A stretch of 64,000 bases of DNA from Planctomycetota bacterium (GTDB lineage Bacteria > Planctomycetota > Phycisphaerae > UBA1845): the NCBI GenBank assembly GCA_024275565.1, contig JAJRYY010000173.1, positions 16,103 through 80,102 of the forward strand, given 5' to 3'. The notes beneath the pieces are model-generated. The model saw only the letters and a program-made list of their open reading frames with translations, made no database searches and had not been told where the DNA came from. Of this stretch, positions 2,349 through 53,522 are shown piece after piece; within the stretch, counting starts at the first letter, position 1, and every line of letters begins with the position of its first letter. Made by a program: the position numbers and the translations under genes.

Positions 2349-2449
2349 TGTGCTGTCCTAATCTACGCAACACTGTTCATGTGTTAAAAAGCGCCGACTC
2401 CACGGAAACGGTCTAATCCCTGCTTGACAGTCTAATCCCTGTTTGACGG

Positions 2450-3148
2450 TCAATTCCTCGCTTCCGGCGACCGATTCCAACGCACCACCTGCGGTTTACG
2501 CCAGAGATATGGATTCGGAATCACCAATACATGCACCAGTCGCGTGAACGGGAAAAAACCGATCACAAGACAGGCATTGACAATATGCAGCTTGACTGCG
2601 AATGGCATCGCAATGACGTACGAGATGTCCGGATCCAGCATCACGATCGACCAGAGGTATGGGGTGGCTGACGCGGCAAACCACGACGATCCCCACGAAC
2701 ACGTCACAGCCACATACACGCCACTTACCACCTGAATCAGGAGGAGAACGTGCAGAATGATGTCAGATATGCTGGTCACCGTACGCACCTTGCTATAGGT
2801 CAACCGACGCACAAGCGTACTCATCAGGCCGAGCAGAGTGAGCAGACCGAAAATTAACGCGGATATCTCTAGGATGTAGAGGCGAACCGGGTGGCCATTC
2901 CATGCAAGCACCGTACGAGGAAAAAGAAACGCCACAAAATGTCCGGCAATGACCACGAGTATTCCATAATGCAGCGGCACCATGCCCCAGAAATGTCGTT
3001 CATTTTCGAGAAACTGCGACGACAGGCTTGAATATGTGAATGCCTGGGCACGGTAACGCTGGATGGTCACCAGGAAGAAAAGCGCAAGCGCCAGATATGG
3101 GGCAACGCCAAACAGCAGCTGATCCAGATAATTGTGTGTGTTTCCCAT
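2450..3148 (-). CDS. narI: respiratory nitrate reductase gamma subunit (cytochrome b)
   Basis: 232 aa, 5 TM, NarI-like; directly downstream of narJ. Confidence 0.93.
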   Translation of the reverse strand: MGNTHNYLDQLLFGVAPYLALALFFLVTIQRYRAQAFTYSSLSSQFLENERHFWGMVPLHYGILVVIAGHFVAFLFPRTVLAWNGHPVRLYILEISALIFGLLTLLGLMSTLVRRLTYSKVRTVTSISDIILHVLLLIQVVSGVYVAVTCSWGSSWFAASATPYLWSIVMLDPDISYVIAMPFAVKLHIVNACLVIGFFPFTRLVHVLVIPNPYLWRKPQVVRWNRSPEARN

Positions 3149-5228: not shown

Positions 5229-5263
5229 TCATTCACTCCATGCATCACAATTAACTCCAACCA

Positions 5264-8200
5264 TCACCATTTCAAATCAGGACACTTGCGCACCAGGATA
5301 TGCGTATCCCGATTCACGCCCGTCGGCCCCCAGTAATTGAAGTGGTAGGTAAATTGTCCGTAACCTCCGACCATCAACGTCGGTTTCAGGCGTGTCCGGA
5401 TCAGACTGTTGTGTCCGCCGGCACGACGATAACCACGCTTCGGAGATTTCGGAACCGAATAGGTCCGCTCCGGCGAGTGGTACTGAATACAGATCCCTCG
5501 CGGCAGTCGTGCGCTCACAACGGCACGCGTCACAACCACACCATGGTCATTGAAAATTTCAACCCAGTCGTTATCGACCACACCGAGACTCTTCGCATCC
5601 TTCTCATTCATCCACAGTGGCTCGACACCACGCGACAGCGTCGACATACGTTCGTTGTCACCATACGTCGAGTGGATATGCCACTTCCCATGCGGCGTCA
5701 GATAATTCAAGGTCATCGTATCGCTGCCGGCTTCGGTGAAGCGCATATCAGCATATTCCGTCGGTAACGGTTTGGGCTTGTACGTCGGAAGATGCTCGCC
5801 AAACGCCAGATAACCCGTGTGATCCAGATAAAAATGCTGCCGTCCCGTAAGCGTTCGCCACGGAACCTGACATTCAATGTTGTAGGTAAACGCAGAATAC
5901 GGACGACCATTCTCCAGAAGACCGGACCACATCGGACTGTTCACGAAACGGAACGGACCCTTTTGCAGACCCTCATAATCCGTCCGGACATTGCGAGAAC
6001 GCTCAGCCAGGTGCGCCAGCGGCAATCCGACCTTGACCTCCATCTCCTTATAGGAACGGTAGGCAAGCTCACCATTCGTCACCGTCGCCAGCTTGAGAAT
6101 GATATTGCAGCAGTCTTTGTCACGCTCGATCGACAGATGCTTATTCCCGCCCCACTCCACCACCGGCAGATGCTCAAGATACTCATCGTGAATGTCCTGA
6201 ATCTGGTAGTGCGTACCATGCGCACCAAGACCATTCTTGCGGGGCAGCGGGCCAAACGAGATGAACTGGTTGTACAGATTCTTATAATCGCGCGTCACAA
6301 TCTTCATACCCGGCATCGTCTTACCGGGAATCGCCTCAATCTCGCCCGTGATCCAGTCCTTGATGTCCGGCTGAGAAATCTCAGCAGGCGTATCGTGCGC
6401 CAACGGAGTCGTCACCAGATCCTGAATCGGTTCAGGGAAATGCTTTTCCGCCAACTCAGAAAACTTCTTCGCCAGTTCACGGAAAATCACCCAGTCGCTC
6501 TTCGACTCCCATGCGGGAGGAACCGCAGGCGTCAGCGGGTGAATGAAGCTATGCATATCCGTCGAATTCAGGTCAGCCTTCTCGTACCACGTCGCAGCCG
6601 GCAGCACGATATCCGAGTACAATGCAGATGTATCCATCCGGAAGTTGAGATCGACCACCAGGTCCATCTTGCCCTGTGGAGCTTCCTTATGCCAGGCGAC
6701 ATCCTCGATGGAATCCTCCGCCATATCCTCAGCAACACTGTTGTGGTGCGTCCCGAGGTAGTGCTTCAGGAAGTACTCATGCCCCTTCGCACTCGACATC
6801 AACGCATTACCACGCCAGATGTACCAGATCCGAGGCCAGTTCTCCGGAGCATCAGGATCCTCAACAGAGAACTTCAGCTTCCGATCCTTAAGCTGCTTCA
6901 CGACATAATCCACAACCTGCGATTCATCTTTCGCGCCAGCAGATTGTGCTTCCTTCACAATATCAATCGAATTCTTTTCAAACTGCGGATAAAACGGCAA
7001 CCACCCATTCCGGACCGCCTGAACCTGCGCATCCATCGTATGACCGCTCGTCAGCGGAGCACCCTCGCTCCGTTTCGGAACGGTATGGTAGTCCGTAAAG
7101 GATTTCTCATAACGCCACTGATCACTATGCACATAGTGCCAACTCGGGGCATTCTGTAGACGGGCGGCTGGAAACCAGTCCTTACCCAGCGCGATAGCAC
7201 CCCAGGGCTCTGCCGGGGCAAGCTTCTCCTGACCCACATAGTGCGCCAGTCCACCACCGTTCACGCCGACACAACCGCAGAACATCAACGCATGAATACC
7301 AGCACGATACATCAGGTTGTTGTGGTACCAGTGATTGATACCCGCACCGATAATGATCGTGCACTTCCCGTTCGTAAGCTCTGCCGTCGTACCCCACTCA
7401 CGGGCAAAACGCGTCACCATCTTACGCCCCATACCCGTATACTTCTCGGACCACGCAGGCGTGTACGGCATGTCCTCGTCATAACTCGCAGGATACGCAC
7501 CACTCAAACCGCGTGGCACCCCATACTGAGCCATCAAAAGATCGTACACCGTCGCAACCAGAACAGTCTTACCATCAACCGTCTTGATCTTCTTGACCGG
7601 AACCCCACGATTCAGCGTGACACCCTCGCCGAAATCATCGAACTCAACAGAAACAACCTCATCGTGATCCTCAAGAAACGTCAGCTCGGGATCGATCTCG
7701 CTGCCATCCTGCGCATCCTTCAGTTCGAGATTCCACTTACCATTCTCACTGCCCCACCGATGCCCCACAGACCCCAACGGCATCTTGGGACGCTTTTCCT
7801 TCGCATCCCACATCAGGAATTTCCAGTCCGGATGCTCAGTATCCTTATAGGCATCAATCCGCGAAGCTCGAAGCAGTTTGCCCGCGTGGTGTACCCCATC
7901 GCCCTTCGAAATCTCAACCAGCATCGGCGAGTCGGTATATTTCTTCGAATAATTCAGGAAATACGGAACCTTCTTCTCGTGATGGAACTCCTTCAGCAAC
8001 ACATGGTTGACCGCCATCCACCAGGCACCATCCTGACCAGCATTGATCGCAACCCACTCGTCAGCATACTTCGCAACCTGATTGAAGTCCGGAGCAAACA
8101 CCCACATCTTCGAACCATTATGACGCGCCTCAGCCGCAAAGTGGCAGTCCGGCGTTCGCGTCATGTTCAGATTCGAACCCATCACCGCAAGCATCTTCGC

Positions 8201-12544: not shown

Positions 12545-12626
12545 TGTGGATCGAACGGGAGCATGCCCCCGGATCGAACGATGGTGGGATAAAGGTCCAC
12601 CTGAGTGAGACGCCACACTTGCCAAT

Positions 12627-12660
12627 ATCGACCGCTAACCGATATCGACCGCTAACCGAT
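12627..12660. repeat. 17-bp direct repeat (atcgaccgctaaccgat x2) covering the stop codon of the 12652-13845 gene
   Basis: two identical 17-mers read directly; a third partial copy lies in the gene end. Confidence 0.9.
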
Positions 12661-34936: not shown

Positions 34937-35434
34937 ATGAATATCAACTTGGTCATGTTTCAGGAATCCGGCGAACGGCGAGACTTCCCACTGTCGAGAC
35001 CCGTCACCACCGTAGGACGCAAGGAAGATTGCGACATCCGCATCCCGCTCGCCGAAATCTCACGCCATCATGCGAAATTCACCCTCGACGACGCCATTCT
35101 CAAAATTCTCGACCTCGGAAGTGCAAACGGTACATTCGTCAACAACAAGCGGGTCAAGGAATCCAGGCTCTCTGCCGGCGATCATGTCGTCGTGGGACCG
35201 GTCGTATTCACCGTCCAGCTCGACGGAAAACCCAACGACGTCCGGGCTGTCAAAACGAAATTACGAACACTCTCAAATGCCAGCCCTCCAAGCAACAGTC
35301 CGCAGGCAGCTCCCCCTGTCGAGGAAGACCTGGACCCAATCAGTGCGCTGGAAGCATTGGCCTCAAGTGCAGATCAGACAGCGATCGACGCTTTCGATGA
35401 CGATGACGGAATCCTCAACGACAGCGTCCTGTAG
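34937..35434 (+). CDS. FHA-domain protein
   Basis: TTVGRKEDCDIRIPLAEISRHHAKF...LGSANGTFVNNKRV. Confidence 0.92.
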   Translation: MNINLVMFQESGERRDFPLSRPVTTVGRKEDCDIRIPLAEISRHHAKFTLDDAILKILDLGSANGTFVNNKRVKESRLSAGDHVVVGPVVFTVQLDGKPNDVRAVKTKLRTLSNASPPSNSPQAAPPVEEDLDPISALEALASSADQTAIDAFDDDDGILNDSVL

Positions 35435-35473
35435 TAAGCTGGGAATAAGCAAGCTGGGATAAGTAAGCTGGGA
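35430..35473. repeat. 14-15-bp tandem repeat x3 beginning at the FHA gene stop codon
   Basis: tgtagtaagctggga / ataagcaagctggga / taagtaagctggga. Confidence 0.85.
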
Positions 35474-35641
35474 TATTCGTGGTGGTCGTAACAGGTTGAA
35501 AACCGGTATTGTCATCATCGGGCAGCGATGTTTGTGCTTGCATGACAACCTGATCTCAAGCTTCTCGAATCACACCAATGGTAATCTCCGCGCCTGCCGA
35601 TAAAATGATATAGTGACCACACATGCCAACAGAGCAACTTC

Positions 35642-38972: not shown

Positions 38973-39140
38973 CTACTTTGCCGGTGCTTTGGGCTTCTTT
39001 GGGGTAGCACCAGGCGCACCGCTGGGAACGATGAAGCACAACCCGCATCGACCGCAGCGGATTTTCTTGCCTCGGGCATTATCCGGAACCTGCAACACGG
39101 AACGGCAGGTCAGATTCGGGCACAGTAGCGTGATGGCCAT
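38973..39140 (-). CDS. small zinc-ribbon protein (55 aa), absent from the ORF track
   Basis: MAITLLCPNLTCRSVLQVPDNARGKKIRCGRCGLCFIVPSGAPGATPKKPKAPAK* read on minus strand. Confidence 0.7.
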   Translation of the reverse strand: MAITLLCPNLTCRSVLQVPDNARGKKIRCGRCGLCFIVPSGAPGATPKKPKAPAK

Positions 39141-39397
39141 TCGTTCACTTTATCTCCCGGACGGGCGTGCCAACTCACTGGCACCATTGTCTGTCGTCCC
39201 CAATTTCCATTCGTCACAATTTCCATTCGTCGGCAAATTGCCAGCCGTCCACAATTGCCAGTCCACGCCGCAGACACCCGTGACAGAGGGGTATATCGGT
39301 CCGCAAGACCTGCGGGTTTACCATTGAATCCCGGGGGATACCACTGAATCCTGAGGGGGTTACCACTGAATAATGTTTGATTCGGAGGCTTAGCCAG

Positions 39398-39463
39398 ACG
39401 GCAGTTATCCGGACCCTCGGCAGCAGTTATCCGAACCCCCGGCAACCGTTATGCGGACTCACG
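39398..39463. repeat. 22-bp tandem repeat x3 starting inside the 3' end of clpX
   Basis: rc: CGTGAGTCCGCATAACGGTTGC / CGGGGGTTCGGATAACTGCTGC / CGAGGGTCCGGATAACTGCCGT. Confidence 0.9.
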
Positions 39464-40738
39464 GCGACGTTTTGGCTTGGTGGCGAAGAGCTTTTCCTTC
39501 TTATCGACAATGGCTTCGCTGACGACATATTTTCCGGATTTGGGGTGTTCCGGGAGGTCGAACATGGCATCGATCATGAAATTCTCCATGACCGCACGAA
39601 GCGCCCTGGCGCCGGTTTCGCGTTTGATCGCTTTTTGAGCGATGTTCTTGAGCGCACCCTTGGAAAATTCCAACTGGCAACCTTCGAACTCGAAGAATTT
39701 CTGATATTGACGCACAATCGCGTTTTTGGGTTCCGTGAGGATTTTTATCATCACTTTCTCGTTCAGCGGCGACAGCGCGGTGATGATGGGTAGACGCCCC
39801 ACAAACTCGGGAATAAGCCCGTATTCGATCAAGTCTTCGGGGATGATCTGAGACAGAAGCTCGGCAGTCTCTTCCGCTCTTGTGGCGTCGTCCATGCTTT
39901 CCGAGGCACAACCAATGCTGCTCCTGCCAACGCGACGCTTTATAATATCAACCACGCCTGTAAACGTTCCGCCGCAGATGAAGAGGATGTTCGTGGTGTC
40001 GAGCTGAATGTACTGCTGCTCGGGGTGCTTTCGACCACCCTGCGGGGGTACGTTGGAGAAGGTGCCTTCCAGCATTTTCAGCAGCGCCTGCTGCACGCCC
40101 TCACCGGAGACATCCCGCGTGATGCTGACATTCTGGGTCGTTCGTCCGATTTTGTCGATTTCGTCGATATAAATAATGCCCCGCTGAGCGAGTTCCAGGT
40201 CATACTCGGCAGCCTGGAGGAGTCTCAGAAGGACATTTTCGACGTCCTCCCCGACGTATCCGGCTTCTGTGAGGGTCGTTGCATCTGCGATCGCGAAGGG
40301 GACGTTCAGGATTCTGGCGAGCGTCTTGGCCACCAGCGTCTTGCCGGAACCTGTCGGACCGACCATGAGAACGTTCGATTTATCCAGTTCGACGTCATCA
40401 CCGCCCTGATCGGTGTGAGTGAGTCGCTTATAATGGTTGTGGACCGCGACGGAGATGGCGTGCTTGGCTTCTTCCTGTCCGATCACATACTGGTCGAGGA
40501 ATTCGTTGATCTGACGGGGTGTGGGCGTCTGCCCGACGACGGCGCGGGCGGTGGAGGATTTTCGCAGTTCCTGCCGGATGATGTTGTGGCAAAGCTCGAC
40601 GCAGCTCTTACAAATATACACATCTCGCGGACCTTCAACCATCGGGCCTGCTTCGCGCTGGCTTTTTCCACAAAAGCTACAGGAATTGTTCCGGCGTTCG
40701 CGACCGCCATTGCCACCTTTGGTACCAGACATGTTCAT
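39449..40738 (-). CDS. clpX: ATP-dependent Clp protease ATP-binding subunit
   Basis: N-terminal C4 zinc finger [16 protein letters not shown], ClpX-type length. Confidence 0.97.
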
Positions 40739-45194: not shown

Positions 45195-45315
45195 GATGGA
45201 TGTATATCGGACGCTGAAGGCCTGAAAGCGCGGGTGAAATGTCGCGCCAGATGAGAGAATCCACCCACAGCCCGCAATTCACTCAGACAACAATCCACAA
45301 CGACCTCAGCTTCGC

Positions 45316-45385
45316 CGTCAGTCTACACCCCTCAGTCTCAGCCCGTCAGTCTCAACGCGTCAGTCCCAGCCCGTCAGTCCATGTC
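45316..45385. repeat. 14-bp tandem repeat x5 beginning at the GNAT gene stop codon
   Basis: rc: ACATGGACTGACGG / GCTGGGACTGACGC / GTTGAGACTGACGG / GCTGAGACTGAGGG / GTGTAGACTGACGG. Confidence 0.9.
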
Positions 45386-52082: not shown

Positions 52083-53522
52083 ATGACAATTCGTAAGTAT
52101 AGTGGCGTTTCGTGTGCAATTCTGATGGCGTTGCTGCTCGCATTCCAAACAGGATGTCCATCCGTACGGGGTGGTCGCGATGTTGGAGGCGGTAACGGTG
52201 GTGGTGGCGACGTTGGCGGCGGCGACGTTGGAGGCGGTGACGTTGGCGGCGGCGACGTTGGTGGCGGTGACGTTGGTGGCGACGACGGCGGCGGCGACGT
52301 TGGTGGCGACGACGGCGGCGGCGACGTTGGTGGCGACGACGGTGGTGGTGGCGACGTTGGCGGCGACGACGGTTCGCAAGTGACCCTGACACCGGTCAAG
52401 ACGAACATAGACGTCCACAATGGCGGTCGCATCGCTGTCGGTGACGATCTACTCGTGTACGGTTACGGTGGATTCGCTGGTGTCGATTACATCATCCCAT
52501 CCGAAGGAGATACCGAAGGCCGAAACCTGCCCGATGGTGACAGTTTTGTGGCGGGTTCTTTTGCTGTATCCGGAAAGAAGATTGCGCTTGTGAGCAACTT
52601 CCTGGTCACGATCTTCGACACGACGACCGAAACCGCAACAGCCATCGGCGAAAATCAGATCCGTCTCGTCAACACACCCTCAGGGATTTACTCACAGGGT
52701 CACATCATGGCAGATGGTCCGTACATCGCCTGTCGGAACGATTCAGGCAGCAATGATGGTAGCCTGGTTGCTGTCATTGACGTGAGTGGCGATGTGCCAA
52801 TGGTCATTTACTTCACCACCAACCCGGAAAACAATGTCGATCACATTGCGGTGGATGGTTCTGCCGGTCAGGTAGCAGCCTCAGCCGGCAACGTCTTCTA
52901 CATCTACGACATCAATAATCCAACAGCAGCACCTGCCGTGTACGACACAACAGATTCCGGTGGCATTGGCGACAACATCTTCACTCTTGATGGTGGATAT
53001 ATCTTCTACGAAGATGCTGAAGCGTTTGGCAACGCCAGGTTCCTGGACGTCGCTGACGGCAGCATCACCACATTGACACAGAACCCCGCCACTGGCGAAC
53101 AGTGTCACAACGCGGACACCTATGTGTACTTTGTCGATCGCGATTCCGAGGATTCGAACGGTGGCGATGCGCGAAGTGGTGTTGGCGCAGTACCAGCAGC
53201 AGACGCGTCGCTTGCGGGTGATACTCAAATAGACGGATCAACCACAAACAACGGATTCCTCGGTTGGAGTCAAGCCTGCTCAGTGACGCCGGATGGTGCA
53301 TATGCATATATCTCCGGCATGGGATCCATCGGTTCGGGCGAGTTCCTGCAGGTGAGTACCGGCGGTGCATTCTCGCTGATTGCAGACCCAGATGGGTCGA
53401 GCCAGTACGGACTGCCCGGAACGGATGTCGCCACGAGTGCAACGCTTGTCGGTTTCAAAACAGGCGATGGAACGACCGCTGGCAGCTCAACGAAGGTTGG
53501 CTACATCATTCTCGGCAATTGA
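52083..53522 (+). CDS. putative lipoprotein with Gly-Asp repeat linker and propeller-like domain
   Basis: MTIRKYSGVSCAILMALLLAFQTGC then (GGGDVGG/GGDDGGGDV)n. Confidence 0.75.
   Translation: MTIRKYSGVSCAILMALLLAFQTGCPSVRGGRDVGGGNGGGGDVGGGDVGGGDVGGGDVGGGDVGGDDGGGDVGGDDGGGDVGGDDGGGGDVGGDDGSQVTLTPVKTNIDVHNGGRIAVGDDLLVYGYGGFAGVDYIIPSEGDTEGRNLPDGDSFVAGSFAVSGKKIALVSNFLVTIFDTTTETATAIGENQIRLVNTPSGIYSQGHIMADGPYIACRNDSGSNDGSLVAVIDVSGDVPMVIYFTTNPENNVDHIAVDGSAGQVAASAGNVFYIYDINNPTAAPAVYDTTDSGGIGDNIFTLDGGYIFYEDAEAFGNARFLDVADGSITTLTQNPATGEQCHNADTYVYFVDRDSEDSNGGDARSGVGAVPAADASLAGDTQIDGSTTNNGFLGWSQACSVTPDGAYAYISGMGSIGSGEFLQVSTGGAFSLIADPDGSSQYGLPGTDVATSATLVGFKTGDGTTAGSSTKVGYIILGN

What the first reader, a model, noticed from the sequence alone, without database searches (positions are those of the whole stretch)
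39398..39463. clpX 3' end is the first unit of a 3 x 22-bp array
Minus strand: CGTGAGTCCGCATAACGGTTGC (contains clpX ...R E S A stop) / CGGGGGTTCGGATAACTGCTGC / CGAGGGTCCGGATAACTGCCGT. Each unit keeps an ATAAC at the stop position. Similar behaviour at narI, the GNAT gene, the FHA gene and the 12652 gene suggests a general 3'-end process: reiterated stops in several frames, or termination-linked duplication.
Basis: partly seen in the sequence, partly recalled or inferred. Interest (0 to 1): 0.6.

Follow-up and report, generated by a model that had tools for sequence, protein, structure and literature searches.

The report
Tandem duplications starting at gene ends
The tail of the clpX gene has been copied twice just beyond its own stop codon, and it is one of hundreds of such short tandem duplications in a planctomycete genome that carries far more of them than its relatives and keeps them where they do no harm, above all at the ends of genes.

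Summary
The array is real: 3 x 22 bp, minus strand, window 39401-39465, with the clpX stop in unit 1. Relatives fix the polarity: in 28 of 29 relative loci ClpX ends in ESA-stop (mostly RRRESA), and none has an array over the stop, so unit 1 is the ancestral gene end and units 2-3 are copies in the 3' flank.

The proposed genome-wide test, run on 1.40 Mb (32%) of this Phycisphaerae genome, supports the placement: arrays cover stops 73 times (38.6 expected) and starts 11 times (38.4 expected).

The proposed mechanisms fail or are unneeded. Copied stops are kept no better than other triplets (47 vs 46.4), and clpX's own frame stays open 113 codons past its stop. Duplicating a unit that contains the stop is protein-neutral at any period; that rule, plus avoidance of 20-40 bp before starts, predicts 52-58 stop-covering arrays against 63 seen.

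The larger finding is the mutational load: 1.41 arrays/kb of intergenic DNA versus 0-0.19 in relatives, periods mostly 15-24 bp, 94% multiples of three inside genes, and signs of flanking microhomology. Cause unknown: Pol I flap nuclease, MutS, ExoVII and RecJ are present; Ku, Cas1 and reverse transcriptase were not found.

The parts
39449..40738 (-). clpX (429 aa), ends RRRESA-TAA
   Evidence: ORF; Pfam ClpX zinc finger and AAA_2; C-terminal ESA-stop found in 28 of 29 relative loci
39442..39463 (-). unit 1: clpX codons R-E-S-A-stop plus CGGTTGC; the ancestral copy
   Evidence: sequence; same gene end without an array in relatives
39420..39441 (-). unit 2, copied into the 3' flank
39398..39419 (-). 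unit 3; the two downstream copies are more alike (91%) than the reference copy and the clpX copy (73%), in the tool's register
39314..39371 (.). second, unrelated array (period about 20-22, 2.8 copies) in the same convergent gap
39182..39266 (.). third, unrelated array (period 16-18, 4 or more copies) in the same gap
39110..39445 (-). open frame in phase with clpX beyond its stop; the copied TAAs lie in other frames and give no backup stop
   Evidence: ORF list, starting two codons after the clpX stop in its frame; sequence
2411..2463 (-). narI stop-spanning array, period 19
5231..5271 (-). narG-type (molybdopterin oxidoreductase) stop-spanning array, period 19
12625..12660 (-). stop-spanning array of an unknown gene, period 17, 100% identical copies
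45315..45379 (-). GNAT gene stop-spanning array, period 28 (2 x 14)
35433..35475 (+). array abutting the stop of the FHA-domain gene, period 14

Best explanation
This genome carries, or recently carried, an unusually active process that duplicates stretches of about 14-24 bp head to tail anywhere in the chromosome, probably by slipped or flap-mediated misalignment at short direct repeats during DNA synthesis. Selection then filters the products. Inside genes almost only periods that are multiples of three survive. At starts and just before them most are removed. At gene ends, any unit that includes the whole stop codon is harmless to the protein, because the first copy keeps the stop, so arrays of any period persist with the stop in the first unit. 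The clpX array is one such product: the RESA-stop end was copied, and a copy was copied again. Shown: the burst relative to relatives, the period window, the phase filter, the polarity at clpX, the lack of extra stop retention. Inferred: the slippage or flap mechanism and its genetic cause.
For: Array density is 1.41/kb of intergenic DNA and 0.207/kb of coding DNA here, versus 0-0.19 and 0-0.05 in six sampled relatives of the order; real versus shuffled is 321 versus 0.8. Period is a multiple of 3 in 207 of 220 arrays wholly inside genes but in 113 of 289 wholly intergenic and 29 of 70 with the stop in unit 1. Units are mostly unrelated between loci. Self-match excess over relatives is confined to lags of about 14-24. 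Of 61 clean exact duplications 14 have 3-5 extra matching bases at their edges against about 3 expected, suggesting microhomology. ClpX ends in ESA-stop in 28 of 29 relative loci with no array over the stop. A neutral unit-placement model predicts 52-58 stop-covering arrays, observed 63. Intergenic arrays occur on 38 of 39 sampled contigs of 15 kb or more.
Against: The stop excess is absorbed only when 20-40 bp before starts are excluded and about 3 bp of microhomology is allowed; with neither it is 63 vs 41.7 (z 4.5), and convergent gaps keep 32 vs 23-26. Density in convergent gaps (3.2/kb) exceeds codirectional (1.4) and divergent (1.2). No repair-gene lesion was found. Part of the extra edge matching may be decayed third copies. 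Genes were called by my own simple caller.
Confidence: 0.75

Rival explanations
1. Reiterated stops: copies are kept because they supply backup stop codons in several frames downstream of the gene.
For: Genes with a stop-spanning array have a nearer next in-frame stop (median 11 vs 19 codons, p 0.002); 49 of 69 next copies still hold a stop.
Against: The stop triplet is kept no better than other triplets of the same arrays (47 vs 46.4, sd 3.5); copied stops are spread over period frames 17/19/13; the share of in-frame periods (29 of 70) equals that of intergenic arrays (113 of 289). In clpX the own frame is open for 113 codons past the stop.
Confidence: 0.05
2. Termination-linked duplication: transcription termination, R-loops or ribosome release at gene ends raises the local duplication rate.
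For: Array starts peak in the last 20 nt of genes (7.3/kb convergent, 3.0/kb codirectional), also among the youngest arrays; convergent gaps are densest; a residual excess of 32 vs 23-26 remains in convergent gaps.
Against: Inside genes there is no clear rise toward the 3' end (coverage 0.009-0.024 from 150 to 25 bp before the stop, 0.024-0.031 in the first 150 bp), so the change is close to a step at the stop, as selection predicts. The placement model explains most of the excess.
Confidence: 0.15
3. The arrays are functional 3'-UTR elements (binding sites, terminators or RNA structures) kept by selection.
For: 7.6% of genes carry one at the stop; a few arrays share REP-like palindromic cores.
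Against: Units are mostly unrelated (17 of 380 share a 14-mer with another array); no inverted repeat in the clpX gap, no Rfam hit, no terminator-like site at the array; arrays inside genes are also strongly enriched over relatives.
Confidence: 0.05

Closest known systems
Tandem repeats of archaeal Borg elements (PMC9879509)
   Same: Locally unique units, examples of 18-21 nt, independent origin at each site, units divisible by three in ORFs but mostly not between genes, partial repeats at the edges, and regions whose first unit lies within or partly within gene ends.
   Different: Borg repeats were scored as perfect with at least 3 units and are A-rich, on extrachromosomal elements; here copies are imperfect (median 89% identity), mostly 2-3 units, on a bacterial chromosome.
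Bacterial minisatellites / VNTR loci
   Same: Tandem units of 10-40 bp, intergenic or in-frame within genes, slippage commonly proposed.
   Different: Density: 613 arrays in 1.40 Mb here, against a handful or none per 100 kb in relatives of the same order.
TAACTGA direct repeats of Beggiatoaceae (PMC4679880)
   Different: One fixed 7-bp sequence, mostly upstream of starts and proposed as regulatory; here every locus has its own unit and starts are avoided.
Duplications in flap-nuclease mutants (yeast rad27, bacterial Pol I flap domain; from my own knowledge)
   Same: Short tandem duplications flanked by short direct repeats.
   Different: The Pol I 5'-nuclease domain is present here in an open 937-aa frame.

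Membership tests
Minisatellite / VNTR | Head-to-tail imperfect units of about 10-60 bp at one locus | tested here: met
   TRF 3.0 x 22 bp, 81%
Minisatellite / VNTR | Copy number varies between strains | not testable with these tools
   Among the 40 relatives searched none shares the genus
Borg-type tandem repeats | Perfect units, at least 3 copies | tested here: not met
   Median identity 89%; 202 of 380 intergenic arrays have 2 copies
Borg-type tandem repeats | Period divisible by three in ORFs but not between genes | tested here: met
   207 of 220 vs 113 of 289
REP/BIME-like 3' elements | Shared palindromic sequence dispersed at many gene ends | tested here: not met
   No inverted repeat in the clpX gap; units mostly unrelated
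Reiterated-stop element | Copied stops conserved above the rest of the unit | tested here: not met
   47 of 69 vs 46.4 expected

The most novel reading that the evidence does not exclude
A single bacterial lineage has a specific mutator state that writes 14-24 bp tandem duplications across its chromosome, several-fold to tens-fold above its relatives, with a size window narrow enough to point to one enzyme or replication intermediate and, possibly, a modest extra rate at gene 3' ends: a natural chromosomal counterpart of the Borg repeats.
Probability: 0.4. Interest if true: 0.7.

Novelty: new member of a known kind. Interest (0 to 1): 0.45.

Why it matters
The clpX array itself is ordinary, but it exposes a genome with hundreds of locally unique duplications of different ages whose placement reads like a map of what selection tolerates: in phase inside genes, rare before starts, free at stops. 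That gives a natural data set for the origin of minisatellites, and a lineage contrast (dense here, near zero in relatives) in which a responsible gene could be sought. It also shows that stops in first units need no special mechanism.

Tried and rejected
Loss of a repair gene as the cause: the Pol I 5'-nuclease, MutS (gene apparently cut by the contig end), ExoVII large subunit and RecJ are present; SbcD is not recognisable in most of the group. Ku-dependent end joining: Ku is not found here nor in nearly all relatives. CRISPR-integrase or reverse-transcriptase writing: no Cas1 and no RVT_1 hit in this genome (95% complete, so absence is not final). Longer survival of stop-anchored arrays as the reason for the excess: the excess is also seen in arrays of 94% identity or more. 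A dispersed family for the clpX unit: near-matches are at or only little above shuffled counts. A first exact-duplication count was spoiled by masked N runs and replaced. Papers: no description of this in Phycisphaerae was found.

Full report
Observation. The sequence is as described. On the minus strand, 39463-39398, three 22-bp units follow each other and the clpX stop lies in the first. TRF scores 81 at 81% matches. In shuffled gene-flank DNA of the same genome, arrays of score 50 or more arise 0.8 times per 262 kb and none reaches 80, against 321 and 137 real ones. The same 513-bp convergent gap between clpX and a squalene/phytoene synthase gene holds two further arrays with unrelated units (39314-39371 and 39182-39266).

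Where it comes from. The window is contig C134 of a 4.4-Mb, 236-contig genome, 95% complete. In 28 of 29 relative loci the search found the protein ending in ESA-stop, mostly RRRESA, and the following bases do not repeat that end (one locus, L039, was not matched by the search pattern). None of the loci has a TRF array over the stop. Unit 1 is therefore the old gene end and the other units are copies of it. The two downstream copies are closer to each other (91%) than the reference copy is to the clpX copy (73%), which fits two steps.

The proposed genome-wide test. I fetched 1.397 Mb (32%) of the genome, called 1,009 genes with a simple codon-based caller (tried out on the window) and ran TRF. 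Of 380 arrays that are at least 30% intergenic, 73 cover a stop against 38.6 +- 6.1 under random intergenic placement, and 11 cover a start against 38.4 +- 5.5; well-scored genes give 63 vs 29.2 and 9 vs 30.0. Convergent gaps hold 3.17 arrays per kb, codirectional 1.42, divergent 1.24. The stop is in the first unit in 70 of 78 cases, against 32 for a uniform position. 7.6% of genes carry an array over their stop.

Why this does not need a special 3'-end process. A head-to-tail duplication whose unit holds the whole stop leaves the protein unchanged at any period, because the first copy keeps the stop and the copies fall in the flank. Duplications that disturb a start or leader do not have this freedom. 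I therefore placed units, not whole arrays, at random over the protein-neutral positions of each gap after removing the expansion. With 20-40 bp before starts excluded and 3 bp of microhomology allowed, 52-58 of 211 arrays should cover a stop; 63 do (z 1.0-2.3). A modest excess in convergent gaps (32 vs 23-26) remains unexplained. Inside genes, array coverage does not clearly rise toward the 3' end, so the change at the stop is close to a step, which fits selection better than a gradient of damage at termination.

Reiterated stops. In 69 stop-spanning arrays the stop triplet is identical in the next copy 47 times; the other triplets of the same arrays predict 46.4. Retained stops occur with periods of all three phases (17, 19, 13), and the share of periods divisible by three (29 of 70) equals that of intergenic arrays (113 of 289). 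Such genes do have a nearer next in-frame stop (median 11 vs 19 codons), which passive copying would give. In clpX the copies are out of frame and its own frame stays open for 113 codons.

The larger finding. Density of intergenic arrays is 1.41/kb here, against 0.18, 0.03, 0, 0, 0.19 and 0 in six relatives of the order, 0.14 in other Phycisphaerae and 0.05 in Bacillota; inside genes 0.207/kb against at most 0.075. Intergenic arrays are on 38 of 39 sampled contigs of 15 kb or more, so they are not from a contaminant. By simple proportion the genome would hold about 1,900 arrays (extrapolation). The self-match excess over relatives lies at lags of about 14-24, most periods are 15-24, and identity runs from 77% (10th percentile) to 100% (90th), so the process has run for some time and probably recently. 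Inside genes 207 of 220 periods are multiples of three. Edge matches exceed chance: of 61 clean cases 14 have no extra match against 33 expected, and 14 have 3-5 extra against about 3. This suggests short direct repeats at the ends of the duplicated stretch, as slippage or flap misplacement would leave, though decayed third copies could add to it.

Cause. Not found. Pol I 5' nuclease, MutS, ExoVII and RecJ are present. Ku, Cas1 and reverse transcriptase gave no hit. None of the relatives searched is of the same genus, so the onset cannot be placed.

Known parallels. Borg tandem repeats (PMC9879509; [quoted passage not shown] They differ in being perfect and extrachromosomal. I found no report of such a burst in Phycisphaerae.

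Limits. The gene caller is my own; stop positions are robust but short genes may be missed, which leaves a weak 3-base signal in 'intergenic' DNA. Relatives were sampled at 80-173 kb each. Statements on age and mechanism are indirect.

Noticed in passing
own-genome contigs C136:11877, C16:7458, C160:15297, C22:1672, C8:21643, C8:36303: A dispersed REP-like palindromic element with core CACAGCCG...CGGCTGTG recurs, sometimes inside arrays of 34-60 bp period.
   Followed up: no
own-genome contigs C142:2931, C37:17385, C7:21356, C160:2033 and 10788: A second shared motif, AGGTGGGCCAC / AGGTGGCCCACCT, recurs in several otherwise different arrays.
   Followed up: no
own-genome contigs C149:1-69 and C4:1-69: Two contigs begin inside the same 17-bp array on opposite strands, so arrays probably break the assembly.
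   Followed up: no
window 39449-39466 and relatives L026-L054: The extreme C-terminus ESA-stop of ClpX is conserved across the order although the preceding linker varies.
   Followed up: partly
window 52177-52371: A 13-copy, 15-bp array near the start of the gene at 52125-53522 gives a repetitive N-terminal segment.
   Followed up: no
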